Positions 27,661-46,394 of a stretch of DNA of 46,394 nucleotides are shown one piece after another. The notes under the pieces were generated by a model. The model was not told the origin of the DNA. It saw only the letters and a program-made list of their open reading frames with translations, and did no database searches. Each line of letters opens with the position of its first letter. The stretch's first letter is position 1. The translations under genes were made by a program, and so were the position numbers. The stretch spans positions 1 to 46,394 of the forward strand of contig LUZE01000159.1 in the NCBI GenBank assembly GCA_001602845.1. The letters are read 5' to 3'. The stretch is from Bacteroidales bacterium Bact_13 (GTDB taxonomy: Bacteria; Bacteroidota; Bacteroidia; Bacteroidales; UBA932).

Positions 27661-29172
27661 CTACGCCTCCTTCAGCCAGGCCTGGATGCGGGCGATGTCG
27701 TCGTAGAAGGTGCGGTCTTCGCGGATGACGGCGACGCGGGCGCGGACGCCGTCATACACGCGGCGGGATGCGGGCGCCAGCTTGTCATAGATATCCAGGC
27801 AGTCGACGGCCTGCGCCAGGGCGATATACTGGATGGACAGCACCTGGAAGGCGTTGTCGATGACCCGGGCCGTCAGCAGGGCGGTGTTCGTGCCCATGCT
27901 CACGATATCCTGATTGTCGTTGTTGTTCGGAATGCTGTGGACATAGTTCGGCATGGCCAGCGTCTGGCACTCAGCCGTGGTGGAGGTGGCGGTGAACTGG
28001 CAGGCCTGCATGCCATAGTTCAGGCCCAGCGTCCCGAGGTTCAGGAACGGAGGAAGAATCTCATTGATCCGGCTGTGGAACAAGTAGTTGAGCTGCCGCT
28101 CGGCCGTCATCGCGATGCGCACCACGGCAATCTTCACCTTGTCTTCTTCGAGGGAGATGTAGTCTCCGTGGAAGTTACCGCCGTGATAGACGTTGCGGGT
28201 GACGGGATCGACGATCGGGTTGTCGGAAGCGCAGTTCAGCTCCTCTTCGATGATGCGGCGGCTGTTCTCGAGGGTCTCGAGCACGGGACCGAGGATCTGC
28301 GGCACGCAGCGCAGCGAATAATACGCCTGCACCTTCTTCTCGAACACGTCCGTATCGGCGTGCCCGTTGTCGTAGAGCTCATGCTCCCGCTGCGTCAGGC
28401 AGTCGCTGCCTTCGGAAAGTTTCCGCATGCGGGCCGCGATTTCAATCTGGCCGGGGTGCCGGCGCGCCTCGTTGAGCGGGGCGGACATCAGGTCGTCGTA
28501 CGAGGAGGCGATCTCGTTCATCATCACGCCCGCCATCACCGAAAGGTCGAGCAGACGCTCCGCATCATGCTGGTTGACGATCGAGAGACCTGTCATCACC
28601 GACGTGCCGTTGGTGATCGAAAGGCCTTCGCGCAGATAGACCTTCAGCGGCTTGAGGCCGCATTCGTCCATCACCTCGCGGGTCGGACGCCATTCGCCCC
28701 GGTAGTGCACCTTCCCTTCCCCGATAAGCGTCAGGGCGATGTGGGCGAGCTGCACCAGGTCCCCGCTGGCGCCGACACTGCCGTGCTGCGGGATGAACGG
28801 GATGATCTCCCGGTTGATGAATTCGACCAGCAGGCGGACGACATCGGGATGGATGCCCGAGCGGGCCTGGAGCGTCGTGCCAAGGCGTGCGATCATCGCC
28901 GCCCGCACCTGCAGGTCGGACAGCGGCTCGCCGGCGCCCGTGGCATGGCTCCGGATGATATTGTATTGCAGCTCCAGCAACTTGTCGTCATCGATGCGCC
29001 ACTGCGCCATCGGGCCGAAGCCGGTGTTGATTCCGTAAATCACCTTCTCGGAAGCGAATTCCTTGAGGAACTCATAACACGCCTCCACCTCTTTCATCGG
29101 CAGGGCGGCCAGGTCGAGCTTGCCGCCGTGCCAGAGGATTTCCTCTGCTTTCTGGAATGTAATGTAATTCAT
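27661..29172 (-). CDS. Aromatic amino-acid ammonia-lyase (HAL/TAL family)
   Basis: 503 residues. The MIO-forming Ala135-Ser136-Gly137 is in GSVGASGDLVQLAHIAL; NTGFGPMA near residue 50, the selectivity-loop segment RSHATGAG, and the late NNNDNQDIVSMG are the family hallmarks. In general, histidine lyase serves histidine degradation, but here no hutU, hutI or hutG genes are near, and the gene is the last in a polyene cluster. In flexirubin-type pathways a homologue deaminates tyrosine to 4-coumarate, the aryl starter. That role is inferred from context; the Ser-His at the selectivity position also occurs in histidine lyases, so substrate is open. It follows the acyltransferase stop by 9 bp. Confidence 0.9.
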   Translation of the reverse strand: MNYITFQKAEEILWHGGKLDLAALPMKEVEACYEFLKEFASEKVIYGINTGFGPMAQWRIDDDKLLELQYNIIRSHATGAGEPLSDLQVRAAMIARLGTTLQARSGIHPDVVRLLVEFINREIIPFIPQHGSVGASGDLVQLAHIALTLIGEGKVHYRGEWRPTREVMDECGLKPLKVYLREGLSITNGTSVMTGLSIVNQHDAERLLDLSVMAGVMMNEIASSYDDLMSAPLNEARRHPGQIEIAARMRKLSEGSDCLTQREHELYDNGHADTDVFEKKVQAYYSLRCVPQILGPVLETLENSRRIIEEELNCASDNPIVDPVTRNVYHGGNFHGDYISLEEDKVKIAVVRIAMTAERQLNYLFHSRINEILPPFLNLGTLGLNYGMQACQFTATSTTAECQTLAMPNYVHSIPNNNDNQDIVSMGTNTALLTARVIDNAFQVLSIQYIALAQAVDCLDIYDKLAPASRRVYDGVRARVAVIREDRTFYDDIARIQAWLKEA

Positions 29173-29181
29173 GCTAAATCT

Positions 29182-30318
29182 CTAACCCTTCAGGGCGTCC
29201 GGGTTGCTGTACACCGGACCGGCATAGATTCTTAGGTATATGTCGCGCAACTTCAACGCATCCAGGGAAGGATAGGCGCCGATGTCCCGCTTCATCTTCG
29301 TCAGGAACTGTTCTTTGATTTCGGGAGAATAGAGGCCCGCGAAGCGGCTGCTCTCGTTCAGCAGGTCCCAGGCTACATAGTTGGTGTCCCACAGTTTGTA
29401 GCCGCGCCACACCTGCGCATCGATCTGCGCCGCCACCGACTGGATATCCTCACGACGCAAGGGGTCGCAGAAGCTGGACGTGTCGATCGGCCGCCCGAAC
29501 GACAGGTGGACGTTGCCTTTGGGCGACGTGATGCCGGTGATGATGCTCTGCAGGTCCTCGCCCGGCGCCTTGACGTACGGCATGCCGTCCATCGAACGGT
29601 ACAGCTCCACGGCCTTGAGGATGTCGCAGGGCTCCCACTGATAGGAAATGGCCAGCGGCGTGATATGCAGCGCGTCGATCTGCGTCTTGCGGTTGCCGTT
29701 CATCATCACCATCCGGATCAGTCCCTGCTCGGTGCGGTCGAAGCCGTCCTTTGTCCGGCCGTTCCGCTGCGCGATCCAGAGCGACTCGCCATGGGAAACC
29801 ACATAGTTGATGTAGGCGGAAAGATGTTTCGACGACTTGAGGAAACTGCGCACGTTGCTGGTCTTCCGGTCAGTCTTGAACATCTTGTTCGACATCCCGA
29901 AATCGACGACGAACTGCGGTTTCATCAGGTTGCTGCCGAAAGTGATGTGGCAGGTGGGAATCCGGCATTCGTCCAAGGCGATCTGATGCAGGTAAGCATC
30001 CAGCACGATGTCGCGGTGGTTCGAAATATACAGCGTTCCGTATGAGCCGTCGATGCCTTCAGCGCCCGAATAGGTGAAACTGGTCATCGTCTTTTTCATG
30101 ATGGCATGGAACAGGGGCACCATCACATCGTGCTGGAACTGGTCGGACGTGCGTACGCTCCGCAGGAGCGCCTTGAACCGGTCCACGTCCATGTGGTTGT
30201 CCAGGAACATCAGCGCGGGCACGAGCATCGGGTCCGAGGCCATCCGTTCCATGGCGGCCGGGATCTCCGAGTCGTAATACGGCCGCATATCGTCGAATTC
30301 TTCGGGCAGCTGAATCAT
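29182..30318 (-). CDS. Acyltransferase, glycerol-3-phosphate/PlsB-like in pattern
   Basis: 378 residues. The core motif is YISNHRDIVLDAYL near residue 98: His-Arg-Asp followed by Asp, which is HX5D rather than HX4D if the second Asp is counted and HxD if the first is. Other marks are IAQRNGRTKDG (about 183-193) and PLAISYQWEPCDILKAVE. No transmembrane helix. In the polyene operon it probably attaches an acyl group to a lipid or sugar head. It belongs to a family of 1-acyl-glycerol-3-phosphate acyltransferase-like proteins seen in Bacteroidota polyene clusters. It starts 6 bp after the ligase stop. Confidence 0.85.
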   Translation of the reverse strand: MIQLPEEFDDMRPYYDSEIPAAMERMASDPMLVPALMFLDNHMDVDRFKALLRSVRTSDQFQHDVMVPLFHAIMKKTMTSFTYSGAEGIDGSYGTLYISNHRDIVLDAYLHQIALDECRIPTCHITFGSNLMKPQFVVDFGMSNKMFKTDRKTSNVRSFLKSSKHLSAYINYVVSHGESLWIAQRNGRTKDGFDRTEQGLIRMVMMNGNRKTQIDALHITPLAISYQWEPCDILKAVELYRSMDGMPYVKAPGEDLQSIITGITSPKGNVHLSFGRPIDTSSFCDPLRREDIQSVAAQIDAQVWRGYKLWDTNYVAWDLLNESSRFAGLYSPEIKEQFLTKMKRDIGAYPSLDALKLRDIYLRIYAGPVYSNPDALKG

Positions 30319-30324
30319 CTTCGG

Positions 30325-31632
30325 TTAGATTTTAGGTCTGAGGTCCACTACCTTGATGGGTTTGCGGCTGGCTTCCCTGTAGATGTCGCGCGCGAGGGCG
30401 TCGGCGCGGAGGATCTCGATGTTGGGAGCCACGCGGATCTTGGCGCGGAACGTATTCTTGAGGTCCGCCACCAGCCGGTCGTCCCGCTCGGGATCGGGAG
30501 CGGGCAGGCCGATGCGCACCGTCACGTCGTCGTTGCCCACGTCGTTCAGGCTGAGCACCAGCTGGTAGTTGGCGATATCGTTTCGGTTGTCGAGCACGTC
30601 GATGATCATCGGCGGATACAGGGTCGTGCCCTTGAACTTGATCATGTTGTTCTTCCGGCCCACCAGCGGCGTCAGGCGGTACGACCAGCGGCCGCACCGG
30701 CACTGTTCGGTGATCTTGGCGGCCATGTCGCCCGTACGGAAGCGCAGGAGCGGCATGCCTTCCACGCCCAGTGTGGTGACCACGATCTCGCCGACCTCGC
30801 CGTCCGGGACGGGCTGGTCGTCCTCTCCGATGATCTCCACGATGATCAGCTCCGGATGGACGTGTCCGCCACAGCCGTACTCACACTCCGAGAACGTGGC
30901 GCCCATCTCCGTGGAGGAGTAGGTGGCATAGAGCTGCACGTCCCATTTCTCCCGGATGCGGCGGCCCAGCAGGTTCAGGTTGAAGTGCTGGTCGCGCATG
31001 CCTTCGCCGATGCCGATGATCTTCCGCACGCTGCTGCCGCGGTAGTCGATGCCGTGGTCCTCGGCGTACTGGATCAGGCGCGGAATGAACGACGGCACGC
31101 ACATGATGGCGTCAGGATGCAGGCGCTGGATGGTGTCCCACTGCAGCTCGGGGATGCCGTTGCCCACGCGGATGATGCTGGCTCCCAGCTCGCGGATGCC
31201 CAGGAAATAGGCCAGGCCCGCCATGAAGCGCTTGTCGATGGTCGTCATCAGCTGCAGGATGTCGCCCGGTTTCAGCCCGGCGCAGGCGAAGGATTTCTTC
31301 TCGTTGTATGCCAGGCGCTGCAGGTCCTTTTCGGAGCAGGCGAACGTGACGGGTTCACCCAGCGTGCCGGAGGTCGTCACATAATCGACGATCTTCTCTT
31401 TCGGGCAGCACAGGAAATCCCAGTTGCGGAGCTGCAGGTCCTTCTTTTCGGTGAAAGGGAGGGCCGTCAGGTCTTCGAGATGCCGGATCCGGGAAATGTC
31501 CACATTGTTCTCACGGAACATCTGCCGGTAATATGGTGAATTCGCCTGCAGGTAAGCCAGGGCCTCTTGAAGCAGATTTTCCTGGAACGCCTTGATGGCC
31601 GCGGGCGACTCGAATTCAATGTCATTCTTCAT
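30325..31632 (-). CDS. Phenylacetate-CoA ligase-like ANL acyl-activating enzyme
   Basis: 435 residues from ATG 31632 (MKNDIEFESPAAIKAF); longer readings into the hydrolase are not credible. The P-loop DYVTTSGTLGEPVTF (about 85-99), the acceptor motif YATYSSTEMGATF (about 239-251), the zinc-like CEYGCGGHVHPE and RTGD define the PaaK-like branch of the ANL superfamily. It adenylates a carboxylic acid and passes it to CoA or an ACP. In this cluster it most likely activates the cinnamate-type product of the lyase. It overlaps the hydrolase upstream by 11 nt. Substrate identity is inferred. Confidence 0.9.
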   Translation of the reverse strand: MKNDIEFESPAAIKAFQENLLQEALAYLQANSPYYRQMFRENNVDISRIRHLEDLTALPFTEKKDLQLRNWDFLCCPKEKIVDYVTTSGTLGEPVTFACSEKDLQRLAYNEKKSFACAGLKPGDILQLMTTIDKRFMAGLAYFLGIRELGASIIRVGNGIPELQWDTIQRLHPDAIMCVPSFIPRLIQYAEDHGIDYRGSSVRKIIGIGEGMRDQHFNLNLLGRRIREKWDVQLYATYSSTEMGATFSECEYGCGGHVHPELIIVEIIGEDDQPVPDGEVGEIVVTTLGVEGMPLLRFRTGDMAAKITEQCRCGRWSYRLTPLVGRKNNMIKFKGTTLYPPMIIDVLDNRNDIANYQLVLSLNDVGNDDVTVRIGLPAPDPERDDRLVADLKNTFRAKIRVAPNIEILRADALARDIYREASRKPIKVVDLRPKI

Positions 31633-32557
31633 TATTCTTCCTCTTGCTCTTGAGCAATTCTTTAAACCATTGCAGGAACGTAGCCTGCCACTGACGGGTC
31701 TCGTCGCTGAACCGTTGTGGATCGGCGCCGAAACCGTGACCGCCAATCTTATATTGTACGAAAAAATGGGGTACTTTGTTTGCGGTAAGTGCGGAATCCA
31801 GCAAATTAGAATTGCGGTAATCCACGATCGGGTCGTCCACGCAGTTGAGCAGGAACACCGGCGGGCCGTCAGGCCGCACATGCTTCTCCAACGACAGCGA
31901 ATCGCGCAGGACGGTGTTGCGTTCCCGGCGTTCGCCCAGCAGGCCCCGGCGGGAACGCTTGTGGACGCATTCCTGTTCCATCGTCACGACCGGATAGATG
32001 GGCGCCACGAAATCAGGCCGCAGCGATACCGTGGTCTCGATGCCGAGCGGTGCCAAAAAATCGGTCCCGTACAGTTCTGCCGCGGACATTACCAGGTGGC
32101 CGCCCGCCGAAAAGCCCATTGCACCGACCATCCGGGGATCTATTCCAAGACTCTGCCAGTTTTCCCGCACCAGCTGGATGGAGCGCTGCAGGTCGGCAAT
32201 CATGTCAGGGTGTTGGTTGCCCCCGCCGAAAGTCGCCCGGGACCGGAAGACAAAGTCGAACCAGCCGCCCGTGCGGTATTGCAGCAGGAAGGCAGCGTAG
32301 CCCTGGTCACGCAGCCACTCGGCCACCATCACGCCCTCGTGCTCCACGTCCAGCCAGAAATAGCTGCCGCCCGGACACACGATGAAGGCCGGCAGGCCAT
32401 AGTGGTCGGCTTCGGGGAGATAGGGTGTCAGCGTGACAGCGTGCGCACCCCGGACGGGCGTCCCGTCCCAGATATGGACCGGTTCCCAGACTGCCTCCTG
32501 GGCACGAAGATTCGTGCAGAGGCACAGCAACCCGATCAGCAACAGTATCTTCTTCAT
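31622..32557 (-). CDS. Secreted alpha/beta hydrolase (BD-FAE/esterase-like)
   Basis: 311 residues. Signal peptide (MKKILLLIGLLCLCTNLRAQ), oxyanion strand FIVCPGGSYFWL near residue 64, nucleophile GFSAGGH (about 148-154), Asp in CVDDPIVD and His in GGHGFG. This is a full catalytic triad of the acetyl-esterase/feruloyl-esterase-like hydrolases. A periplasmic esterase inside a polyene operon could trim or transfer the ester-linked product. Its N-terminus overlaps the exporter stop by 4 nt and its C-terminus overlaps the ligase by 11 nt. In Bacteroidota, similar enzymes also act on polysaccharides, so the role is inferred from context. Confidence 0.88.
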   Translation of the reverse strand: MKKILLLIGLLCLCTNLRAQEAVWEPVHIWDGTPVRGAHAVTLTPYLPEADHYGLPAFIVCPGGSYFWLDVEHEGVMVAEWLRDQGYAAFLLQYRTGGWFDFVFRSRATFGGGNQHPDMIADLQRSIQLVRENWQSLGIDPRMVGAMGFSAGGHLVMSAAELYGTDFLAPLGIETTVSLRPDFVAPIYPVVTMEQECVHKRSRRGLLGERRERNTVLRDSLSLEKHVRPDGPPVFLLNCVDDPIVDYRNSNLLDSALTANKVPHFFVQYKIGGHGFGADPQRFSDETRQWQATFLQWFKELLKSKRKNNEE

Positions 32558-36803: not shown

Positions 36804-37175
36804 TCAATCCGTCAGGGTCAGTTTCATCCGGGCGCAGAGGGTTTCGCCGTCCAGGATCTGGACGAGCCAGGTCGCGGGTGTGCCGGGATTCGTCCGTTCC
36901 AACCGGAAGGACAGTCGCGTCGTATGGTCGGGCAGGATGGGCGTCAGGAAACGGATATCCGAGGCTTCCCGGACCTCCAGCTTTTCGCCTGCGGCTTCAG
37001 AAGCCAGCTCGCAGGCCATCTGCACCAGGCAGGCGCCCGGCGTGACCGGCATGCCCTTGAAATGGGCGGCATAGATGGCGCTGCCGGGGCACAGTTCGAT
37101 GTCAGCCTGCCAGGTTCCTTCGGAACCGGTAAGGGCAATCAGTCGGTAGAGGTCGTTTCGGAGCATGGGCGTCAT
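36804..37175 (-). CDS. Hotdog-fold 3-hydroxyacyl-ACP dehydratase-like protein (ApeI-like)
   Basis: 123 residues from ATG 37175 (MTPMLRNDLYRLIALTG), which shares ATGA with the LolA stop; MLRN at 37166 is an alternative. The hotdog helix and FabZ-type loop read AAHFKGMPVTPGACLVQMACELA, equivalent to HFPxxPxxPG with the catalytic His retained and Gln where FabZ often has Glu in the central helix. It should dehydrate 3-hydroxyacyl-ACP in polyene elongation. Two hotdog proteins exist in this operon; this one keeps the canonical histidine better than 42114-42560. Confidence 0.88.
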   Translation of the reverse strand: MTPMLRNDLYRLIALTGSEGTWQADIELCPGSAIYAAHFKGMPVTPGACLVQMACELASEAAGEKLEVREASDIRFLTPILPDHTTRLSFRLERTNPGTPATWLVQILDGETLCARMKLTLTD

Positions 37176-37733: not shown

Positions 37734-38096
37734 CTATCTTACCATCAGGGCGCTGCCGGCCATAATCAGAAACACGCCGATCCATTGCACCCAGTTTACC
37801 TGCTCGTGAAAAATCAAGATGGCCGCCGCCATGCCGAAGATGTAGCTCAGGCTGGTCAGCGGATATACGATGCTCAACGGAAAATGCTTGAGCAGATAGA
37901 ACCACAGCACCGTGGCCACGCCGAACGAGATGCCGCAGCCCAGGTACCACCAGTTGGTCAGCTGTGCCTTGAAGAAGGCCCAGGTCCAGCTGAACGGCCC
38001 TGATTTGGCCAGGCCCAGTTTCAAGAGAACCTGTCCGCCGCTCAGGAAGAAGCTTTGCAGGAGTGCCAGGGGTACGATCTTCCACATAACCGTCAA
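37734..38096 (-). CDS. Small 4-TM EamA/SMR-type transporter
   Basis: 120 residues, four hydrophobic helices (about 6-26, 44-64, 72-90, 98-116), with SGGQVLLKLGLAKSG near helix 1 and YPLTSLSYIFGMAAAIL in helix 3, the pattern of ArnE/F-like or SMR half-transporters. It likely works as a dimer. With the GT2 enzyme nearby it is a candidate flippase for a lipid-linked sugar; drug export is the alternative. Overlaps the chain-length-factor-like gene by 4 nt. Confidence 0.85.
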   Translation of the reverse strand: MTVMWKIVPLALLQSFFLSGGQVLLKLGLAKSGPFSWTWAFFKAQLTNWWYLGCGISFGVATVLWFYLLKHFPLSIVYPLTSLSYIFGMAAAILIFHEQVNWVQWIGVFLIMAGSALMVR

Positions 38097-38899
38097 ATTC
38101 TTTTAAGGAGTATGTCGGCAAAAGACTTGCCGTAAAAATCATTTTTCAGCAGGACGCTCGCCGGCCCTTCTGCCAGCAGCGCGACGGCATCGCAGGCACC
38201 CAGCGCTGAAACGCTGAAATTGTCGCCGTAGCGGGGCACATAATCCGCGCGGGTCATCACTGCGGCGCCCGGCACAGGTTCCGCGCAGGCGGCCTTGCCC
38301 AGGCGCACCTGTGCCAGTTCGCATAGCGCCCCTTCGGGCGAAGCGGTCAGCAGCATCGAGACGGCCGTCTCCGAGAGCCGTCCGTCGGGTTGCACGAAGC
38401 CGGTGTAGCCGGCCTTCGCGAGAATCGCCGCGAAAGCGGGCGTCATTTCCTCGAAAGCACCCACCAGCGCCGTATCGAGTGCGCCGGAACGGATCTGCAC
38501 CCAGGCGTCGAGCAGGGCGCTCTCGAACGAGATGCCCAGCTGCGAGTAGGTCGCATTGTAGCCGTGGCATTTCAGCCGGATGGCGATCAGCGAGCCGATG
38601 GTGTTGTGCGTGGACTGCATGAAGTGCGTAGGCCGGAGCGGCGTGTCGGAAACGCCAAGCAGCGACTGCAGGAAGAACTCGGTGTTCTCAATGCAGCCCA
38701 GGCCCGTGCCCGTGATCACGGCATCGGGCATCGCCACGCCCGCCTGGTCCAGCGTCTGCCGGGAGACGGCCAGGGCGCGCTTCATCAGCCGCGACAGCCG
38801 GCGCGCTTCCATCACGCTGAACATCCCGGCGTAATCGGGGTCCGGCTGGCAGAGCGAAATCTGCGACAGGGCTTTGATATATATTTTCCGTTCCATCAT
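38093..38899 (-). CDS. Ketosynthase chain-length-factor-like protein without active cysteine
   Basis: 268 residues, KS N-terminal half fold (GTGLGCIENTEFFLQSLLG, STHNTIGSLIAIRLKCHG). The nucleophile elbow reads YSQLGISFESALLDAW instead of TACSSG, so the catalytic Cys is missing, and the C-terminal KS half with its two His residues is absent. This corresponds to the beta-ketoacyl synthase chain-length-factor type found in polyene clusters (Ketoacyl-synt_2). It probably pairs with the catalytic KS at 38896-40098, whose gene overlaps it by 4 nt, and sets chain length. Confidence 0.88.
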   Translation of the reverse strand: MMERKIYIKALSQISLCQPDPDYAGMFSVMEARRLSRLMKRALAVSRQTLDQAGVAMPDAVITGTGLGCIENTEFFLQSLLGVSDTPLRPTHFMQSTHNTIGSLIAIRLKCHGYNATYSQLGISFESALLDAWVQIRSGALDTALVGAFEEMTPAFAAILAKAGYTGFVQPDGRLSETAVSMLLTASPEGALCELAQVRLGKAACAEPVPGAAVMTRADYVPRYGDNFSVSALGACDAVALLAEGPASVLLKNDFYGKSFADILLKRI

Positions 38900-40098
38900 G
38901 CACCGGCGAGGGTTAACAGCAGGGACGAGTCATTGCCCCCGAAACCGAAAGCATTGCACAGAACGTGCCGCAGGGAGACGCCTTCCTGCAGCCGGGACAC
39001 CGGGACGAGACAGGTTTCGTCGGGTTCCCGCCAGTTCAGGTTGGCCGGAATGAAACCATGGCGCATCGCCAGCAGGCAGAACACCGCCTCGATCGAGCCC
39101 GAGGCGCTCGTCGTATGGCCCGTGAACGGCTTGGTCGAGGACACCGGCGGGCAGGCCGCGCCGAAGATCCGGCGGATGGCCGTGCTTTCGCTGGCGTCGT
39201 TGTTCGGCGTACCCGTGCCGTGTGCATTGATGTAGTCGATGTCTTCCGGACGGAGACCGGCCATCGCCAGCGCCTGGCTCATGGCCCGGAAGGGACCTTC
39301 GCCGTCTTCGGAAGAAGCGGTCTGGTGGAAGGCGTCGCAGGCATTGCCGTAGCCCGCCACTTCCGCCAGAGGTTTCACGCCCCGGTGCCGCACGGACGCT
39401 TCGGATTCCAGGATCAGGAACGCGGCGCCCTCGCCCAGGTTCAGTCCCGCGCGAGTGCGGTCGAACGGGCGGCACGGCTCCCGGTCTACGATCATCAGCG
39501 AATTGAATCCGTTCAGGTGATAGTTCGACAGGCTTTCACTGCCGCCGACCGCCACCACGGAAGCCAGGCCGGCCTTGATGAGGTTGGCGCCCAGGATCAC
39601 GGCATTGGCAGCCGAAGAGCAGGCCGTCGACAGGGTCGTGGCCCACGCGAAACCGCCGAACCAGTCGGCGATGGCGTCGGTCGAGGCGCCGCAGTCGTGC
39701 AGCGCGATATACTCGCTGTGTGCGTTGCCCGCAGCCAGGTAATCTTTGTAATACCGTTCCGTGCAGTCCATTCCGCCCACCGTCGTGCCGGAAACCAGCG
39801 GAACCGTGCGGAGGTCTTCCGGGCCGAGGCCTGCCTCCTGCACCGCTTCCCGCAGGGCCAGGATGCCCATCAGGCTCGTGCGCGAGACCGCATGGCCCGG
39901 CTTCAGGCCCAGCATTTCCTTCATCTGCGCGTCGGTCAGCTTGACCTCGCCCGCCAGGAAGGAACGGTCGTCCGCCTGCAGATACTGCAGCGGGGCGACA
40001 CCAGTCGCGCCGGAACGCAACGCCGCGAGCGTCGCGTCCTTACCCGCGCCGATGGCCGAAACCACGCCGGAACCCGTGATATAGATCCTGGCCGGCAT
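38896..40098 (-). CDS. Beta-ketoacyl-ACP synthase II-type, catalytic
   Basis: 400 residues, full KS. The triad is Cys160 (STACSSAANAV), His293 (NAHGTGTPNND) and His328 (STKPFTGHTTSAS), with spacing close to FabF. Residues near the end CNAFGFGGNDSSLLL are the classic C-terminal motif. It should carry out the decarboxylative condensations of polyene elongation with the chain-length factor downstream. The upstream ACP stop lies 5 bp away. Confidence 0.95.
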   Translation of the reverse strand: MPARIYITGSGVVSAIGAGKDATLAALRSGATGVAPLQYLQADDRSFLAGEVKLTDAQMKEMLGLKPGHAVSRTSLMGILALREAVQEAGLGPEDLRTVPLVSGTTVGGMDCTERYYKDYLAAGNAHSEYIALHDCGASTDAIADWFGGFAWATTLSTACSSAANAVILGANLIKAGLASVVAVGGSESLSNYHLNGFNSLMIVDREPCRPFDRTRAGLNLGEGAAFLILESEASVRHRGVKPLAEVAGYGNACDAFHQTASSEDGEGPFRAMSQALAMAGLRPEDIDYINAHGTGTPNNDASESTAIRRIFGAACPPVSSTKPFTGHTTSASGSIEAVFCLLAMRHGFIPANLNWREPDETCLVPVSRLQEGVSLRHVLCNAFGFGGNDSSLLLTLAGA

Positions 40099-40103
40099 CC
40101 GCG

Positions 40104-40361
40104 CTATTTCTTGCGGTTCTTTGCTACGTAATCAGCCATCACAGCCACCGACTGGAACACCTTCTTGCCCTCGGCGGGGCTGGTCAGGCGGATGCCGTAA
40201 TTCTTTTCGATCAGCACGATCAGTTCCAGGACGTCGATCGAGTCCAGGCCGAGGCCGTCACCGAAAAGCGGTGCATTGTCATCGATCTGGTCGGGCGTCA
40301 TCCCTTCCAGGTTCAGTGCTTCGATGATCTGAAGCTTGATGTTCTTGATAAGTTCTTCCAT
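40104..40361 (-). CDS. Acyl carrier protein (first in cluster)
   Basis: 85 residues with the phosphopantetheine motif GLDSIDVLEL; Ser41 is the attachment site. Acidic, four-helix ACP pattern, C-terminal KNRKK tail. Start ATG 40361 shares its A with the stop of the KS-like gene (TAATG). Probably the carrier for chain elongation; the second ACP at 43451 may hold the starter or be a separate pool (inference). Confidence 0.95.
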   Translation of the reverse strand: MEELIKNIKLQIIEALNLEGMTPDQIDDNAPLFGDGLGLDSIDVLELIVLIEKNYGIRLTSPAEGKKVFQSVAVMADYVAKNRKK

Positions 40362-40972
40362 TATGCTTGATTCGATTGTATTTTCTCAACGTTTTCGGGC
40401 GTAAAGTCCAGGCCCTCTGCGGCATCCTGGTCCACGAGCATCATCACCGCCGCGAAATGGGAGGCATCCACAGCCTCGGCCCATCCGCAGATGGCGGAAC
40501 GGGTGACACGGTCCTCGAACGCATCGCGGACGGCCGCCACGAACGGCGCCGGCTCGAACGATGCCAGTTCGAAGGCGGTCGTGTCGCCTTCGTATTTGTT
40601 GCGGATGGCGATTTCACCAGTCACGATGTTCGCCAGTGTATAGACGAACAGCGAGGGACTGGGGAAGAAATCGTCTTCCGCTATGGTTTTCTGGTAGTTG
40701 CGGTCGTTGCAAAGCGGGCCGCTGTGGCTGAACAGCAGCACGGCGCGGTCCTCGCGGGGCGTGAAGCGGTCCGCCTCGCCCATCACCAGGAGTTCCGTGG
40801 CCACCACGCCCAGCTTGCAAAGGACGTCCATCTTGAAGAATTTCGGATAGTCCTTCACGAAACTGCGGTACAGTTCGGCCAGCAGGTCGGCGCCGGCAGC
40901 ATCGACGGCCAGCGGCGTTCCGTCCACGGTGACGGAGCCGGGCAGAATGCGTACATACTTGCGGATCTTCAT
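40361..40972 (-). CDS. Degenerate ketosynthase-like protein, short
   Basis: 203 residues from ATG 40972 (MKIRKYVRILPGSVTVDG). A stretch reading FFPSPSLFVYTLANIVTGEIAIRNKYEG resembles the KS central region (SPSxFxYTxxNxxxGEIAIR) but there is no Cys-His-His triad, so it should not condense. Related short KS-like proteins occur beside chain-length factors in Bacteroidota polyene clusters; a structural or gatekeeping subunit is likely. It overlaps the upstream KS by 4 nt and the ACP by 1 nt. Function is not established. Confidence 0.75.
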   Translation of the reverse strand: MKIRKYVRILPGSVTVDGTPLAVDAAGADLLAELYRSFVKDYPKFFKMDVLCKLGVVATELLVMGEADRFTPREDRAVLLFSHSGPLCNDRNYQKTIAEDDFFPSPSLFVYTLANIVTGEIAIRNKYEGDTTAFELASFEPAPFVAAVRDAFEDRVTRSAICGWAEAVDASHFAAVMMLVDQDAAEGLDFTPENVEKIQSNQA

Positions 40973-42117
40973 CGTGCACCTCCTTTTCTGAAAAGCATCG
41001 CCGCATTGCAGCCGCCGAAGCCCGAAAGCAGCTTGATGAAGGCCCGCTTGCCGGTCGTTCGGTTCTGGTTGCTCACATTCACGGGATACGATACGCCCAG
41101 CGTTTCGAAGCCGCGGGTCGCCAGCACCACGCCCGCGTCCACGGCCTGCATCGAGAGCAGCGATTCGAGGATGCCCGCCGCTCCCATCGTATGCCCGTAG
41201 ACGCCCTTGAGGGCATTCACCGGCACGTCCAGGAGGCCGGCGCGCTGCAGCGCAATCGACTCCATCTCGTCGTTGTAGAGCGTCGAAGTGCCGTGTACGT
41301 TCACGAAGGCCAGCTCGTCGGTCGAACAGTGCGCAAGCACGTAGCGGAGCGTCTTGTAGCTGCCTTCCCCGGTCCGCGACGGACCGGAAATGTGGTTGGC
41401 GTCGTTGCGCGTGGCGCCGTCCACCAGTTCCCAGGCGTCCTCCGGCACCCGGTCGACGGCCGACACGACCATCGTCGCCGCCGCTTCGCCCGGATTCAGG
41501 CCACAGCGCGCCGCGTCGAAAGGTTTGCACGGGTCCGGTGACACGGCCTTCAGGCACTGGAAGCCCGAGATGATGAAGCGCGATTGCACTTCCGCGCCCG
41601 CAACCACCACATGGTCGTAGCGGCCGTCCTGCAGCATCCTTCTCGCATGGATCAGGGCCGTCAGGCCCGAAATGCAGGCATTGGAGACCACCAGCGGCTC
41701 GTTCGGGTTTCCGAAGAACGAAGCCACGCGGACGGCCGACACGGAAACGGGGACGGAGGATTCATCCTCGCCGATGGCTTCGACATTGCCCTTGATCGAG
41801 GAGATGACGAATGCGACGCGGGGCGAGGCGGGGTCGATGCCGGCCCGTTGCACGGCGTCCTGGATGGAGAGGATCAGGAGGGTCTCGAAGAGGTTAGATC
41901 CCCGGTCGGAGCCGGGGATGACAGCGGCAGCCTGGCGGGCGATGGCGGCGCGGTCGAAGAGCGAGGCGGCGAAGGGCTCGGGAAGCCCGAAGGTACCCTC
42001 GTGATGCCGCACACCCGTCGCCCCCGCAGCCACGGCACGGAAATTCTCTTCCGTCGTGAAACCCAGCGGCGTCAGGCAGTTGCCCGCACACATGATCACT
42101 TTCTTCACTTCCGTCAT
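40969..42117 (-). CDS. Second catalytic beta-ketoacyl-ACP synthase
   Basis: 382 residues. Active-site residues are Cys148 (VVSNACISGLTALI), His275 (VNVHGTSTLYND) and His309 (KGVYGHTMGAAG). The elbow NACISG differs from TACSSG of the other KS, pointing to a different acyl preference, possibly starter condensation. Residues about 67-74 (PGSDRGSN) come from a palindromic DNA stretch that may be an insertion. C-terminus ends with LSGFGGCNAAMLF. Overlaps the dehydratase-like gene by 4 nt. Confidence 0.93.
   Translation of the reverse strand: MTEVKKVIMCAGNCLTPLGFTTEENFRAVAAGATGVRHHEGTFGLPEPFAASLFDRAAIARQAAAVIPGSDRGSNLFETLLILSIQDAVQRAGIDPASPRVAFVISSIKGNVEAIGEDESSVPVSVSAVRVASFFGNPNEPLVVSNACISGLTALIHARRMLQDGRYDHVVVAGAEVQSRFIISGFQCLKAVSPDPCKPFDAARCGLNPGEAAATMVVSAVDRVPEDAWELVDGATRNDANHISGPSRTGEGSYKTLRYVLAHCSTDELAFVNVHGTSTLYNDEMESIALQRAGLLDVPVNALKGVYGHTMGAAGILESLLSMQAVDAGVVLATRGFETLGVSYPVNVSNQNRTTGKRAFIKLLSGFGGCNAAMLFRKGGAR
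41898..41919. repeat. Perfect 8-bp palindrome (ATCCCCGG ... CCGGGGAT) inside a ketosynthase gene
   Basis: Arms at 41898-41905 and 41912-41919, loop of 6 nt, within the coding sequence of the KS at 40969-42117. Its form is like REP-type mobile palindromes of other bacteria (ATCCCCGG...). It encodes part of the segment PGSDRGSN. No second copy was found by eye in the window. Could be chance in GC-rich DNA. Confidence 0.45.
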
Positions 42118-42560
42118 AGTTCCACCTCCTTGTCGCTGAGGGCCGTCTTGATAGAGGCCGTCGCGATGACCTCGTCGCCGCAGCGGACCTCGATGTCGGT
42201 CATCGTGATGCCGAACACATCTTCCCGGAAGAGGACGGACGTCTCGAGCCGGTCTCCCACGGCGGGATTCCGGTACACCTTGAGCTTGCGGACGCTGCCG
42301 ATATAGCCGATGTGCACCGGCACATGCAGGATGTAGCGGCAGATATAGCCGATCCGCGCAGCGCTTGACTGGGCCATGTGTTCCACCAGCCCTGCCGTCC
42401 GGAAATGGCCGTCTTCGACGAACAGCCCTTCCTCCGGCACCGTGAACGCAGTACGCGTCACCTGCTCGTCATAATGCAGCAGCCTGTCCACGAACAGGAA
42501 AGGCGGAAGCTGCGGCAGGATGTTGCCGACCGGTATCTTTTCAAAGTCCATCATTTCCAA
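42114..42560 (-). CDS. Hotdog-fold dehydratase-like protein with altered active site
   Basis: 148 residues; starts at 42560 (MEMMDFEK) or 42554/42551-proximal ATGs are possible. FabZ-like start ILPQLPPFLFVDRLLHYDEQ and the helix RTAGLVEHMAQSSAARIGYI keep the Glu, but the catalytic His-Phe-Pro loop is replaced by FVEDGHF, so the His is not in the canonical place. It may be a thioester-binding or lower-activity dehydratase partner. The presence of a second, more canonical hotdog in the operon supports a heteromeric role. It overlaps the LpxL-like gene by 10 nt. Confidence 0.85.
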   Translation of the reverse strand: MEMMDFEKIPVGNILPQLPPFLFVDRLLHYDEQVTRTAFTVPEEGLFVEDGHFRTAGLVEHMAQSSAARIGYICRYILHVPVHIGYIGSVRKLKVYRNPAVGDRLETSVLFREDVFGITMTDIEVRCGDEVIATASIKTALSDKEVEL

Positions 42561-43444
42561 AAATCATAAAAGTTGAACCACTGCGTGGGGTAGCGCCGCA
42601 CGACCCGCTCCAGCAGGCCCGCGAACTCCTCCGCCATGGCAGCCGCCCGTTCCCGGGCGTTCAAAGCCCCGTCCATCGCGGCACCGAGCCGCCGGACGAA
42701 GATATGGTATCTGTGCACGCCCTCCTTCATCACGAAGGTGGCGAGCATCGGCACTTCGCGCCGGGCTGCCAGCAGGAACGGACCTGCCGGGAACCGCGCC
42801 GGAGCGCCGAAAAAGTTGCAGCTGAAATCTTTCGAAGAGCCGAACAGCCGGTCGCCCGGCATATTGACGATTTCGCCCGCCAACAGGGCGGCGTTCAGCG
42901 TGAACAGATGCGACATGTCGTCGGAAACCGGCACCATCGTAATGTTCGTCTTGTCGAACATCCGCTCGCGCTGCTGCATCACGGTCTGCGTCTCCCCGCT
43001 GAACACCAGGGTGAAGATCCGCTTCTTCTCGCTCGGCAGCGAATAGCCCGCCAGCTCCGAATTGCCCACATGCGCATTCACCTGCACGAAGCCGGCATCC
43101 GTGGCGGCCAGGGCGTCGAAATGCTCCTGCCCGTCCAGCTCGATGTCGAACCGCCGGCCGGCATAGAGCGCGAACCGGTCCATGACCACCTGCCCGAGCT
43201 TGAACTCGTTGGCATAGACGCTGAAGAACGAGCGGACGGCGCTGCGGCCCAGCCGGTCGCGGTAGAAACGGTACGACGCGCGGTATCCCCGCCGGTCGAA
43301 CAGCATGTAGAAGGGAATCACGAGGGACGTCACGCCGTAGAAGAACGTGATGGGCAGGAAGCTGAACAACCGCACCAGCGCCCGTTGCATCCAGGGCGTT
43401 CCGCCGGTAGAACCGTGCCAGTCGTTATGGTCGAACTTCGTCAA
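42551..43444 (-). CDS. LpxL/HtrB-like acyltransferase
   Basis: 297 residues. An N-terminal hydrophobic segment (about 21-50, LVRLFSFLPITFFYGVTSLVIPFYMLF) anchors it to the inner membrane. The HX4E catalytic motif lies in NAHVGNSELAG near residue 122, and NMPGDRLFGSSKDF is a conserved late segment, as in lipid A late acyltransferases. In polyene clusters this enzyme is expected to attach an acyl group, perhaps the polyene itself, to a lipid. It is preceded by an ACP gene 6 bp away, which may supply its acyl donor. Confidence 0.9.
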   Translation of the reverse strand: MTKFDHNDWHGSTGGTPWMQRALVRLFSFLPITFFYGVTSLVIPFYMLFDRRGYRASYRFYRDRLGRSAVRSFFSVYANEFKLGQVVMDRFALYAGRRFDIELDGQEHFDALAATDAGFVQVNAHVGNSELAGYSLPSEKKRIFTLVFSGETQTVMQQRERMFDKTNITMVPVSDDMSHLFTLNAALLAGEIVNMPGDRLFGSSKDFSCNFFGAPARFPAGPFLLAARREVPMLATFVMKEGVHRYHIFVRRLGAAMDGALNARERAAAMAEEFAGLLERVVRRYPTQWFNFYDFWK

Positions 43445-43693: not shown

Positions 43694-43714
43694 AGTTTCT
43701 CAATGATTCATTTC

Positions 43715-44809
43715 CTACTTGCGCCTGCATACCAGGATGGTATGACCCTGTCCCAGGTTGTCGTGAATGGCCTCGACCGTCAAGCCGGCCTTCCCGACGA
43801 TCCGGATGAATTCGTCGGAATGGTACATCTTGCTGTTTCCGTTGGCCATGGTCGTGAAATAGAGGCTGGTCATCGTCAGACAGAACGAGGCGGGCTCGAA
43901 ACGCTGGCGGTCCCAGAAGGTCTCCATGATGCACAGGCGGGACTCAGGACGCAGGATGGCGGCCGTACGGCGCAGGATGCTCTCGATCTCCGATTCGCCG
44001 AAGCAGTCGAGGAACTGGCTCATCCACACGATGTCGAACGGCTCGGTGGAAGGCAGGACGGCCTGCTCGTCCAGCAGGTTGACGCCGTAGCCTTCGATGC
44101 GGTCGGCACCCGGCTGTCCGGCGGTCAGCTGCTTCATCATGCCAATCTGTTGCGGCAGGTCGGCGATGGTCACGCGCAAGTCGGAATCATGTCCCACGCA
44201 CTGGAGCGCCCACCGTCCGGTATTGCCGCCCACGTCGAGCAGCCGTTTCGGGTGGAACGAGAAGACGATCTGCAGCGCTTCCTCGAAGGAGTTGTCGGAA
44301 TAGAAGTGGTCGAAGTCGAACCAGGCCTTCTGGACATTCTTCGGCAGGGATGAAAGGCCTTCATAGATGGTCGGCCAGTCGCCCAGGGATTCCAGGCCGG
44401 CGGGGCGTCCTTCCCGCAGGGCTTCGTCGAGGTTGTAGAAACCGCGGTAGTTCACATAGTGGTTGAACGGCATGTTCACCCGCGTGGCCGGATCGTTGAG
44501 CAGGAACCAGCCGGTCTTGGAAAGCCGGAACCGGTCGGTCTCGGGGTTGACCAGCACGACGCCGGCGGAGAGACCCGCTTCGAGCAGGACGCGGGCCGCA
44601 TACTCCGACACCGAGGCCTTTTCTGCCGACTCTTCGATCGTCAGGCCCTCGTCCGCGTCGCGCAGGGCATCGAGGATGCCGTATTCGACCAGCAGGCGGC
44701 AGGCCTCGAAGACGATGGGCCCGAACGCGATGAACTCCGCAAGCCGCTGCGCCTGCCTGGCGCTGAGGGTTTCTTTCGTATAATCAGCTAATGAGGGAGA
44801 AAGATGCAT
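43715..44809 (-). CDS. SAM-dependent methyltransferase (O-methyltransferase type)
   Basis: 364 residues. An N-terminal winged-helix dimerisation part (about 30-110, IVFEACRLLVEYGILDALRD, SVSEYAARVLLEAGL) precedes a Rossmann domain with motif I LLDVGGNTGRWAL near residue 190, the acidic VTIADLP strand, and WMSQFLDCFGESE. It resembles plant-type O-methyltransferase family 2. It could methylate a phenolic OH of the aryl head group, the common decoration of aryl polyenes. Starts 26 bp after the hydrolase stop. Confidence 0.9.
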   Translation of the reverse strand: MHLSPSLADYTKETLSARQAQRLAEFIAFGPIVFEACRLLVEYGILDALRDADEGLTIEESAEKASVSEYAARVLLEAGLSAGVVLVNPETDRFRLSKTGWFLLNDPATRVNMPFNHYVNYRGFYNLDEALREGRPAGLESLGDWPTIYEGLSSLPKNVQKAWFDFDHFYSDNSFEEALQIVFSFHPKRLLDVGGNTGRWALQCVGHDSDLRVTIADLPQQIGMMKQLTAGQPGADRIEGYGVNLLDEQAVLPSTEPFDIVWMSQFLDCFGESEIESILRRTAAILRPESRLCIMETFWDRQRFEPASFCLTMTSLYFTTMANGNSKMYHSDEFIRIVGKAGLTVEAIHDNLGQGHTILVCRRK

Positions 44810-44835
44810 GTTTAAATCGTGGTTCAGGTATAGGT

Positions 44836-45609
44836 TTACAATAGGTTTCGTTTGAGGAATTCCGTGGCAATGGCCACCACGTCACGGCGGCGTTTCTTCA
44901 GGAAATGGTTCTCCTTGTCCAGAAGATGGAGTTCGCCGTTCTTGTAGCAGGCCTTGTACTGTTCGCTGTAGGAGTAAGGCACGATAGCGTCCTCCTTGCC
45001 ATGGATCAGGCAGACCGGTCCTTCGTACGATGCGCTGGTCTCGAAGATAGGGAGGGTCTGCGCGACCGCGAAATAGTTCCGTCCCACCTTGTGGAAGAAC
45101 ACCCGCAAATGGTCGGGCAGATGATTGGGATCGTAACGGCGGCCCATCAGCACACCATGGAGGGCGTCGTCTTTCAGCACGGCGGCTGCGGCCAGCTGGA
45201 CCAGGCACGACACCTTGTCCGCTCCCAGTTCTCCCGCGACCATCCCGGCGACGACACCGCCCTGCGAATGGCCCACGAACGCCACTTTGTCCACGTAATC
45301 GAGGCCCGCCACATAGGCATAGACGGCACGGGCGTCGTCGATCTCACTCAGCACGGTCATGTCGGAAAAGAAACCGTCGCTGCGGCCATGGCCGTCGAAG
45401 TCGAAACGGAGCGAGGCGATGCCGTTCTCGTCCAGCGCCTGCACGATGCTGCGCAGCGGTTCCATCCGCTTGTTGGCCATGAAGCCGTGCATCAGCACGA
45501 CCATCGGGCACGTCTCGCCTTCCTTCAGGCGGGGCTTGTGCACAATGGCGGACAGACGGCCTTTCGGGCCCGGTATAATCAACGATTCACGTATGGACAA
45601 TTCTTGCAT
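44836..45609 (-). CDS. Cytoplasmic alpha/beta hydrolase, first gene of the polyene operon
   Basis: 257 residues from ATG 45609 (MQELSIRESLIIPG); longer readings cross the promoter and overlap the divergent gene. Serine-hydrolase triad: Ser in GHSQGGVVAG (near residue 106-115), Asp in HGKEDAIVPYS and His in KENHFLKK. No signal peptide. It may act as an editing thioesterase on stalled ACP intermediates or as a lipid esterase (inference). First gene after the minus-strand promoter 45621-45628. Confidence 0.88.
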   Translation of the reverse strand: MQELSIRESLIIPGPKGRLSAIVHKPRLKEGETCPMVVLMHGFMANKRMEPLRSIVQALDENGIASLRFDFDGHGRSDGFFSDMTVLSEIDDARAVYAYVAGLDYVDKVAFVGHSQGGVVAGMVAGELGADKVSCLVQLAAAAVLKDDALHGVLMGRRYDPNHLPDHLRVFFHKVGRNYFAVAQTLPIFETSASYEGPVCLIHGKEDAIVPYSYSEQYKACYKNGELHLLDKENHFLKKRRRDVVAIATEFLKRNLL

Positions 45610-45620
45610 AATATAAGTTA

Positions 45621-45628
45621 CAAAGATA
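45621..45628 (-). promoter_or_regulatory. -7 promoter element TATCTTTG of the polyene operon
   Basis: Exact TAnnTTTG on the minus strand, 11 nt before ATG 45609. It drives the 19-gene minus-strand operon. Its -33 region overlaps that of the divergent plus-strand promoter. Confidence 0.72.
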
Positions 45629-45658
45629 CGCAATAATCTTGAAAAACGGAAAAATGCG

Positions 45659-45666
45659 TATCTTTG
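45659..45666 (+). promoter_or_regulatory. -7 promoter element TATCTTTG of the divergent oxidoreductase
   Basis: Exact TAnnTTTG 13 nt before ATG 45680, with CTTG at 45638-45641 as a -33-like element (17-nt spacer). Only 30 bp separate it from the minus-strand -7 box, so both promoters share the same A-rich centre. Confidence 0.7.
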
Positions 45667-45679
45667 CAAACAATAAGGA

Positions 45680-46394
45680 ATGGCCGGAAAAAGAGTCATC
45701 ATCATCGGCGCCGGATTCGGCGGACTGCTCTGCGGAAGGGTTCTCTCCCGCAAGGGGTTCGATGTCACCCTGCTGGAACAGGGGCGGCAGGCCGGCGGCG
45801 CCCTGCAGACCTTCGTGCGCGAGGGGATCCGTTTTGACACGGGATTCCATTCCGTTGGCGGGCTGCAGCCCGGCGAGCCGCTGGAAGCCATCTTCCGGCC
45901 TCTCGGCCTGATGGACCTTCCCTGGGTCCGCACGGACCTCGACGAGATTGTCGGGCAGGGGGACTGCTTTCTGCGTTTGTCCTCGGGCTGGACGGAAGAG
46001 GTGGCCCATGTCCTGGGCCCGTACCGACTCAGTTCCTGGCGGTTGAAAGGCGGTGGGAAGACGCTCGCGGACGCCCTCTCCGAGGGCCTGGATGTCCAGC
46101 TCAGAAAAAAAGTCGTTTCGATTGAAGACCATGTCGTCACCTGCGAAGACGGTTCCGCCTATCGGGGCGACATCGTGATTGCGGCCATCCATCCGCAAGT
46201 GATGGTCAAGCTGCTGAAAGATTCCGTCCGTCCCGCCTACCGCAAGCGCATCGGCATGCTCAAGAACGGGCCGGGCGTTGTGACCGTCAACGCGAAACTG
46301 CGTCCCGGGACGCTGCGGTTCATCAATCACAGCATCTTCATCAGGAACAGCGTGATGATCCATTTCGGCGAACCCGACGAAGCCGGCTTCGCCC
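45680..46394 (+). CDS. FAD-dependent phytoene-desaturase-like oxidoreductase (3' truncated by window edge)
   Basis: 238 residues visible from ATG 45680. The N-terminal Rossmann motif VIIIGAGFGGLLCGRVLSRKG binds FAD; GGALQTFVREGIRFDTGFHSVGG (about 39-61) is the conserved loop of phytoene desaturase/CrtI-like and flexirubin-cluster oxidoreductases. The region from the FDTG loop to the GGGKTLADAL helix is only about 65 residues, whereas relatives usually have about 160; a central segment appears missing with the frame kept. Then RKKVVSIEDH and GDIVIAAIHPQVMVKLL follow. Probably acts on the polyene chain or its saturation state. It is divergent from the polyene operon and shares its promoter region, so it belongs to the cluster. 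Confidence 0.85.
   Translation, partial: MAGKRVIIIGAGFGGLLCGRVLSRKGFDVTLLEQGRQAGGALQTFVREGIRFDTGFHSVGGLQPGEPLEAIFRPLGLMDLPWVRTDLDEIVGQGDCFLRLSSGWTEEVAHVLGPYRLSSWRLKGGGKTLADALSEGLDVQLRKKVVSIEDHVVTCEDGSAYRGDIVIAAIHPQVMVKLLKDSVRPAYRKRIGMLKNGPGVVTVNAKLRPGTLRFINHSIFIRNSVMIHFGEPDEAGFA

What the first reader, a model, noticed from the sequence alone, without database searches (positions are those of the whole stretch)
27661..46394. Nineteen-gene aryl polyene/flexirubin-type operon with divergent oxidoreductase, but no ketoreductase in view
From 45609 to 27661 all genes run on the minus strand with gaps of at most 26 bp and many ATGA-type overlaps. The parts list is a full aryl polyene-type machine: lyase, ligase, two ACPs, catalytic and degenerate ketosynthases, hotdog proteins, LolA-like carrier, MMPL exporter, acyltransferases, methyltransferase. 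A FabG/ApeQ-like reductase, needed for the polyene, is absent; it may lie beyond the right edge. Extra parts such as GT2, EamA-like and two hydrolases suggest a more decorated product than the standard type.
Basis: partly seen in the sequence, partly recalled or inferred. Interest (0 to 1): 0.72.

Follow-up and report, generated by a model that had tools for sequence, protein, structure and literature searches.

The report
Gut Bacteroidales aryl polyene pigment cluster
This looks like a near-complete gene set for a yellow, tyrosine-derived polyene pigment lipid of a kind common in gut Bacteroidales; the supposedly missing reductase sits just beyond the window edge, and the genes for the resorcinol half of true flexirubin were not found.

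Summary
In detail: 19 minus-strand genes, 45609 to 27661, largest gap 26 bp, with a divergent FAD oxidoreductase. The absent ketoreductase is a window-edge artefact: the contig continues, and a FlxB-type SDR (396 bits, cut-off 340) starts 349 bp past the edge. Lyase, ligase and methyltransferase pass curated FlxA, FlxY and FlxJ cut-offs, so this is a flexirubin-type aryl polyene cluster. Its core gene order recurs in many rumen and gut Bacteroidales. GT2 and EamA are standard there, so 'extra decoration' is not supported.

Comparison adds three points. (1) The resorcinol arm of true flexirubin was not found: DarB passes its cut-off in 0 of 36 cluster genomes and 0 of 12 same-order genomes (the window's genome is in both). 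FlxP and an AAT-family protein are missing from the cluster region; EamA is present in 21 of 22 spanning loci. (2) The small protein at 40361-40972 has no Pfam or NCBIfam match but its predicted fold resembles a chain length factor, and gene fusions join it to KS2: probably a second KS-CLF pair. (3) The third ketosynthase (FlxC) is unlinked in this genome.

Known kind, ordinary locus; the resorcinol-free subtype is the most interesting part.

The parts
27661..29172 (-). FlxA-type tyrosine ammonia-lyase (starter: 4-coumarate)
   Evidence: NCBIfam FlxA 818 bits vs cut-off 700, below HAL cut-offs; MIO Ser and Gly in 87 of 87, Ala in 84 of 87 aligned rows
29182..30318 (-). AT1, acyltransferase-like
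   Evidence: Pfam Acyltransferase 21.5 bits, below cut-off 23; conserved in congeners
30325..31632 (-). FlxY-type acyl-CoA ligase
   Evidence: NCBIfam FlxY 668 bits vs cut-off 520
31622..32557 (-). HYD1, alpha/beta esterase (BD-FAE-like)
   Evidence: Pfam PF20434 65 bits
32554..36066 (-). MMPL/RND exporter fused to PlsC-like acyltransferase
   Evidence: Pfam PF03176 and PF01553 over cut-offs
36063..36800 (-). GT2 glycosyltransferase, polyprenyl-phosphate-GT-like
   Evidence: Pfam PF00535 89 bits; best NCBIfam AglJ, PpgS, below cut-offs
36804..37166 (-). HOT1, hotdog dehydratase-like
   Evidence: Pfam FabA 21.5 bits (cut-off 23) and PKS_DH_N 22.1 (cut-off 27); conserved position
37172..37732 (-). 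LolA-like periplasmic carrier
   Evidence: NCBIfam LolA2_flexi 64 bits, below cut-off 125
37734..38096 (-). EamA/SMR-type small membrane protein, ArnE/ArnF-like
   Evidence: Pfam EamA 42.7 bits; NCBIfam ArnE 44.9, ArnF 43.6, below cut-offs
38093..38899 (-). KSd, chain-length-factor-like partner of KS1
   Evidence: Pfam Ketoacyl-synt_2; no Cys at the active-site column; in one open frame with KS1 in 27 of 62 regions
38896..40098 (-). KS1, ApeO-like ketosynthase
   Evidence: Pfam; Cys, two His, Lys in 52 of 52 rows
40104..40361 (-). ACP1
   Evidence: Pfam PP-binding; NCBIfam PRK09184 over cut-off; Ser41 in 52 of 52 rows
40361..40972 (-). KSN, probable second chain length factor, partner of KS2
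   Evidence: no Pfam/NCBIfam match; AF2 pLDDT 90.5; Foldseek to KS-CLF chains incl. ApeC 6qsp_B; in one open frame with KS2 in 14 of 64 regions
40969..42117 (-). KS2, second catalytic ketosynthase
   Evidence: Pfam; Cys and first His in 51 of 51, second His and Lys in 50 of 51 rows
42114..42560 (-). HOT2, FabZ-like dehydratase
   Evidence: NCBIfam FabZ 31 bits, below cut-off 113; found in 47 of 80 named loci
42551..43444 (-). LPLAT, lipid A-type acyltransferase
   Evidence: Pfam PF03279 59 bits
43451..43693 (-). ACP2
   Evidence: Pfam PP-binding 41 bits; Ser39 in 53 of 53 rows
43715..44809 (-). FlxJ-family methyltransferase
   Evidence: NCBIfam FlxJ 571 bits vs cut-off 560
44836..45609 (-). 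HYD2, alpha/beta hydrolase, first gene of operon
   Evidence: Pfam Hydrolase_4 54 bits; 0 of 80 named loci
45610..45679 (.). divergent promoter region, GCGTATCTTTG facing both ways (45631-45621 minus, 45656-45666 plus)
   Evidence: sequence; consensus recalled
45680..46394 (+). FAD oxidoreductase (cut by 2-N gap), co-directional with FlxB ketoreductase at contig 46743-47471
   Evidence: Pfam Amino_oxidase 71 bits; contig continuation; KR = FlxB 396 bits vs cut-off 340

Best explanation
A Bacteroidales flexirubin-type aryl polyene cluster without the resorcinol arm. Proposed route: FlxA deaminates tyrosine to 4-coumarate; FlxY activates it; two KS-CLF pairs (KS1-KSd and KS2-KSN), helped by an unlinked FlxC, extend it on ACPs with FlxB reduction and hotdog dehydration; FlxJ methylates the ring; LPLAT, AT1 and GT2 attach the polyene acid to a membrane (glyco)lipid; MMPL and the LolA-like protein move it to the outer membrane. 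Shown here: gene content, conserved order, family assignments, catalytic residues, a predicted KSN fold, no DarA/DarB match in the assembly. Inferred: every reaction, substrate, protein pairing, anchor and localisation.
For: Four proteins pass Flx-specific curated cut-offs: FlxA, FlxY, FlxJ and FlxB. [quoted passage not shown] The KR is at contig 46743-47471. Conserved order in relatives. Catalytic residues intact in KS1, KS2, ACPs and KR. KS1-KSd share an open frame in 27 of 62 regions and KS2-KSN in 14 of 64. KSN fold matches KS-CLF chains including ApeC. DarA not matched in 6 of 8 genomes, G000 included. DarB over cut-off in 0 of 36 genomes and 0 of 12 same-order genomes.
Against: The genome is 92.4% complete in 178 contigs, so an absent gene may be missed; FlxP and the AAT protein were sought only in the stretches held, not in whole genomes. 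Two Bacteroidales genomes hold DarB-like proteins of 499 and 500 bits, below the 550 cut-off (G278; G367). Both hotdog proteins, AT1 and the LolA-like protein score below curated cut-offs. FlxJ passes only narrowly (571 vs 560). The oxidoreductase is interrupted by an assembly gap. hhalign did not link KSN to the KSs and its fold matches have TM-scores of only about 0.5-0.6. KSN lies next to KS2 and KSd next to KS1, so the absence of crossed fusions is weak evidence. No product was seen.
Confidence: 0.8

Rival explanations
1. True flexirubin cluster whose DarA/DarB lie in the unassembled part of the genome.
For: Assembly 92.4% complete, 178 contigs; in G250 and G293 DarB lies outside the stretch I took around the cluster, so it need not be linked.
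Against: DarB over cut-off in 0 of 36 genomes reached through cluster loci and 0 of 12 same-order genomes. FlxP and the AAT-family protein are also absent from the cluster region.
Confidence: 0.07
2. The cluster makes a non-pigment product, such as an unusual short aryl fatty acid or an ordinary lipid.
For: Two KS-type pairs and several acyltransferases; no chemistry available.
Against: FlxA, FlxY, FlxB and FlxJ equivalogs together with ApeO/ApeC-like KS-CLF and an MMPL exporter.
Confidence: 0.08
3. The cluster is decaying in this species: FlxC has left, the oxidoreductase is broken by a palindromic element.
For: FlxC is on another contig. A REP-like palindrome sits in the oxidoreductase region 43 bp right of the 2-N gap. 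The sisters' lyases are unlinked.
Against: All 19 operon genes are open and the sites tested are intact. The FlxC copy is a full 405 aa and 90% identical to that of G372. The break coincides with an assembly gap. Sisters share the short oxidoreductase form.
Confidence: 0.08

Closest known systems
Flexirubin clusters of Chitinophaga pinensis and Flavobacterium johnsoniae (flx + dar; PMC3992019)
   Same: TAL FlxA, ligase FlxY, ketoreductase FlxB, several KS-type proteins, dehydratases, LolA, glycosyltransferase, exporter.
   Different: No DarA/DarB match; no FlxP-type deacetylase or AAT-family protein in the cluster region; EamA instead. FlxB is divergent with the oxidoreductase and FlxC is unlinked.
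Aryl polyene (ape) clusters of E. coli, Xenorhabdus doucetiae and Acinetobacter (PMC8253772, PMC8358021; passages)
   Same: KS-CLF pair (ApeO-ApeC), a further FabB-like KS (ApeR), ketoreductase, ACPs, LolA-like and RND export, acyltransferases.
   Different: Tyrosine-lyase starter route instead of the 4-hydroxybenzoate route; a probable second KS-CLF pair (KS2-KSN); EamA protein. Compared from the papers, not by sequence.
Flexirubin-like and arylpolyene BGCs catalogued in Bacteroidetes, Bacteroides and rumen genomes (PMC9248904, PMC12940132, PMC8241843; passages)
   Same: Same BGC class; PMC8241843 counts 2,800 rumen aryl polyene BGCs; PMC12940132 reports similarity and synteny of a B. xylanisolvens arylpolyene BGC with the C. 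pinensis flexirubin BGC.
   Different: The passages I read do not discuss absence of the resorcinol genes or a second CLF.

Membership tests
Flexirubin (aryl polyene-dialkylresorcinol ester) | Tyrosine ammonia-lyase FlxA | tested here: met
   818 bits vs cut-off 700
Flexirubin (aryl polyene-dialkylresorcinol ester) | 4-coumarate-CoA ligase FlxY | tested here: met
   668 bits vs cut-off 520
Flexirubin (aryl polyene-dialkylresorcinol ester) | Ketoreductase FlxB | tested here: met
   396 bits vs cut-off 340, at contig 46743-47471, outside the window
Flexirubin (aryl polyene-dialkylresorcinol ester) | Dialkylresorcinol enzymes DarA and DarB | tested here: not met
   DarA no match in G000; DarB only weak matches in G000, under 40 bits; genome 92.4% complete
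Flexirubin (aryl polyene-dialkylresorcinol ester) | FlxP-type deacetylase (and, in my comparison set, an AAT-family protein) in the cluster | tested here: not met
   FlxP absent from the cluster region and 80 named loci; AAT absent from window and L007-L099; whole genome not searched for these two
Flexirubin (aryl polyene-dialkylresorcinol ester) | Polyene-resorcinol ester pigment with alkali colour shift | not testable with these tools
   needs chemistry
Aryl polyene cluster (broad class) | ApeO-ApeC-like KS-CLF pair | tested here: met
   KS1 catalytic residues 52 of 52; KSd lacks the Cys; KS1-KSd in one frame in 27 of 62 regions; not compared directly with ApeO/ApeC sequences
Aryl polyene cluster (broad class) | Dehydratases of hotdog fold | tested here: inconclusive
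   HOT1 and HOT2 below curated cut-offs or unmatched but conserved in place
Aryl polyene cluster (broad class) | FabB-like further ketosynthase (ApeR/FlxC) | tested here: met
   present but unlinked, G000:C142:4765-5979, 76% to FlxC of L095; FabB resemblance taken from the G065 FlxC
Aryl polyene cluster (broad class) | RND/MMPL exporter | tested here: met
   MMPL over cut-off
Aryl polyene cluster (broad class) | LolA-like carrier | tested here: inconclusive
   Pfam LolA 18.3 bits (cut-off 23.6) and LolA2_flexi 64 (cut-off 125)
Aryl polyene cluster (broad class) | Aryl polyene product | not testable with these tools
   needs LC-MS

The most novel reading that the evidence does not exclude
Bacteroidales carry a distinct resorcinol-free aryl polyene subtype in which one module (DarA, DarB, FlxP, AAT-family protein) is exchanged for another (EamA, HYD1, AT1). 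The polyene would be anchored to a sugar lipid assembled by the GT2 on a polyprenyl phosphate and flipped by the ArnE/F-like EamA protein, instead of being esterified to a dialkylresorcinol. Two separate KS-CLF heterodimers would share chain building.
Probability: 0.3. Interest if true: 0.5.

Novelty: new member of a known kind. Interest (0 to 1): 0.3.

Why it matters
[quoted passage not shown] If the resorcinol arm is usually absent there, that label predicts the wrong molecule for abundant gut and rumen bacteria, and the true membrane anchor is open. Assigning the KSN family as a probable second chain length factor gives a testable role to a conserved protein that matched no Pfam or NCBIfam model.

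Tried and rejected
Missing ketoreductase: rejected as a window-edge artefact. 'More decorated product because of GT2 and EamA': rejected, both are standard in relatives. True flexirubin: lowered, DarA/DarB not found. FlxC lost from the genome: rejected, it is on contig C142. KSN as an unrelated protein, as the sequence profiles suggested: set aside after structure prediction and fold search. Oxidoreductase shortening peculiar to this genome: rejected, the short form is also in G372, G373, G376 and G384. Literature searches. For 'flexirubin' with 'chain length factor' one paper was listed, the E. coli APE paper, of which I saw passages. I did not find the KSN assignment in print, but only this open library was searched, with those terms. 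Passages were also seen of PMC6469967, PMC9177418 and PMC11547657; they gave nothing decisive. The structure of the Xenorhabdus aryl polyene lipid is cited as a preprint and no preprints are held, so its anchor could not be compared; I rest nothing on my recall of it.
Full report
Observation. The 19 minus-strand genes from 45609 to 27661 are real. With the starts I chose, gaps range from -11 to +26 bp over 18 junctions and six junctions are 4-bp overlaps. A divergent FAD oxidoreductase starts at 45680. The 70-bp space between the two units carries GCGTATCTTTG facing each way, 11 and 13 bp before the two start codons; this fits the Bacteroidetes -7 consensus as I recall it.

The missing reductase. 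The window is G000:C159:1-46394 of a 65146-bp contig. Two N bases follow the window's last base. An SDR of 190 bits lies at contig 46773-47462; its ORF is 46743-47471 and its start overlaps the end of the oxidoreductase frame by 4 bp. It passes the FlxB cut-off (396 vs 340 bits). Its Ser-Tyr-Lys are conserved in 66 of 66 aligned rows, some of which may be other SDRs.

What the genes are. Over Flx-specific curated cut-offs: FlxA lyase, FlxY ligase, FlxJ methyltransferase (narrowly), FlxB reductase. KS1 keeps Cys, both His and Lys in 52 of 52 rows; KS2 in 50 or 51 of 51. KSd has no Cys at the active-site column. The lyase has the MIO Ser and Gly in 87 of 87 rows and Ala in 84 of 87. The rows are the window plus hits whose frame was at least 80% of the query length; shorter ones were dropped. 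G000 has a second lyase-family gene on C21 (340 bits, below cut-off), beside a 681-aa ORF that I read by eye as urocanate hydratase, so it is probably the histidine lyase. Below cut-off, so only suggested: AT1, both hotdog proteins, the LolA-like protein.

The unannotated gene at 40361-40972 (KSN). No Pfam or NCBIfam match at E 0.01 and no profile link to KS1 or KSd. From an alignment of 34 sequences (the window's and 33 of the 44 candidate ORFs) AlphaFold2 gave pLDDT 90.5, pTM 0.87. The best solved folds are the ishigamide KS/CLF (E 1.4e-6) and ApeC, the chain length factor of Xenorhabdus doucetiae (6qsp_B, E 2.4e-6); for the top five the query TM-scores are 0.54-0.61 and rmsd 5.4-8.9 A, so the resemblance is moderate. 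In single open frames KS1 and KSd occur together in 27 of 62 regions that have KSd, and KS2 and KSN in 14 of 64 that have KSN; KSN with strong KS1 and KSd with strong KS2 occur in 0 frames (98 regions examined). That control is weak, because each partner lies right next to its own KS and the crossed test used higher score limits; frames of metagenome assemblies may also be wrong. Two of the KS2-KSN fusions are in named isolates (Prevotella micans L077, Hoylesella saccharolytica L086). I conclude that the cluster probably encodes two KS-CLF pairs. In Acinetobacter the APE cluster has one KS-CLF pair plus homodimeric FabB-like ApeR (PMC8358021, abstract and passages). FlxC resembles FabB best in its G065 form; in G000 it is unlinked, at C142:4765-5979.

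Relatives. The order of the window's genome is inferred from these. In tblastn of 27 proteins against these 80, KS1 was found in 46, KSd in 45, EamA in 32, GT2 in 13, HYD2 in 0, DarA, DarB and FlxP in 0; flanks of at most 10 kb limit these counts. The core order MT-ACP2-LPLAT-HOT2-KS2-KSN-ACP1-KS1-KSd-EamA-LolA-HOT1-GT2 recurs; in most of those loci lyase, KR and FlxC come first, unlike the window. Fourteen of 80 loci show the lyase with no other cluster gene in the stretch held (one has a weak HYD1 hit), several with short flanks. FlxY occurs in 9 of 40 congeneric genomes, G000 included.

Resorcinol arm. DarB (exemplar 676 bits, cut-off 550) and its neighbour, which I take as DarA from position (no NCBIfam match), were sought in whole genomes. 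DarA: matched in 2 of 8 (G065, G250), not in G000, G024, G002, G025, G027 or G278. DarB over cut-off: 0 of 36 (G000 and the genomes of 35 of the 80 named loci, chosen as the 32 with EamA plus L041, L077, L095); 9 of 23, namely 0 of 12 same-order and 9 of 11 other-order genomes. G000 is in both sets. Results against a clean split: DarB-like proteins of 500 bits in G367 (Muribaculaceae Isolate-036) and 499 bits in G278; in other orders G057 has 519 bits, below cut-off, and G158 has none although it has FlxP.

Module exchange. Of 22 named loci with KSd and any of LolA, HOT1 or GT2, 21 have EamA (miss: L088) and 0 FlxP; in 20 of them EamA is the next hit after KSd (in L028 a weak GT2 hit comes between). 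Of 10 regions with KSd from other orders plus G278, 9 have FlxP (miss: G139) and 0 EamA. Of 9 other same-order regions with KSd, 8 have EamA (miss: G027) and 0 FlxP. An AAT-family protein (Pfam PF03417) is in 8 of those 10 regions (misses: G139, G293) and in none of the window, L007, L008-L099 or the congeneric stretches. FlxP and AAT were not sought in whole genomes. EamA's best NCBIfam models are ArnE and ArnF, below cut-off, and GT2's best are polyprenyl-phosphate glycosyltransferases, also below cut-off; FlxP's best are PdaB, PgdA and NodB deacetylases, below cut-off, ArnD not among them. From this I infer, not show, a sugar-lipid anchor.

Local history. Four congeners (G372, G373, G376, G384) have the same locus beside the same TPR and M23 genes, at 55-95% identity per cluster protein, but without the lyase between AT1 and M23. 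Their lyases are elsewhere and only 69-70% identical to the window's, which is closer to G024 and to a lone horse-gut lyase (78% each). G373, G376 and G384 keep FlxC in the divergent unit; G372 and G000 do not. So lyase and FlxC have moved or been replaced within the genus.

Literature. FlxA and FlxY of C. pinensis are biochemically characterised (PMC3992019, introduction and first part of results read). Arylpolyene or flexirubin-like BGCs are catalogued across Bacteroidetes, Bacteroides and rumen genomes (PMC9248904, PMC12940132, PMC8241843, passages read). Hence a known kind. Export and lipid attachment follow the E. coli proposal (PMC8253772, passages read).

Verdict. Observation confirmed; class supported; 'no ketoreductase' is an edge artefact; 'decorated' not supported; strict flexirubin membership not met. 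On recheck I corrected facts (notably that FlxP and AAT were tested near clusters only, and that the fusion control is weak); the odds stand, as they already allowed for an unproven anchor and pairing.

Noticed in passing
contig G000:C159:46439 (L007:1439), just right of the window; genome-wide: A REP-like palindrome ATGCCCGG-loop-CCGGGCAT has 89 copies in the genome and 0 for the reversed control pattern; one copy lies in the oxidoreductase region 43 bp right of the 2-N scaffold gap.
   Followed up: partly
window 27661-29172; L193-L196; L020: The lyase is closer to a lone lyase in a horse-gut genome and to G024 (78%) than to the unlinked lyases of sister genomes (69-70%), although most of the sisters' other cluster proteins are nearer the window's than G024's are: suggests replacement or exchange of the lyase.
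   Followed up: partly
L020, L021, L026, L027, L081 and others: Flexirubin-type lyase genes standing alone, with no other cluster gene in the stretch held (14 of 80 loci).
   Followed up: no
L163 (G024:C7), 4462-8875: A second small operon with ACP, two hotdog proteins, FlxC, oxidoreductase and KR in a congener that also has a main cluster on another contig.
   Followed up: no
L165 (G367, Muribaculaceae Isolate-036): A DarB/StlD-like ketosynthase of 500 bits in a genome with an EamA-type cluster: possible exception to the resorcinol-free rule.
   Followed up: no
window 45680-46394: The oxidoreductase of this clade lacks about 80 residues present in L095 and G024.
   Followed up: partly
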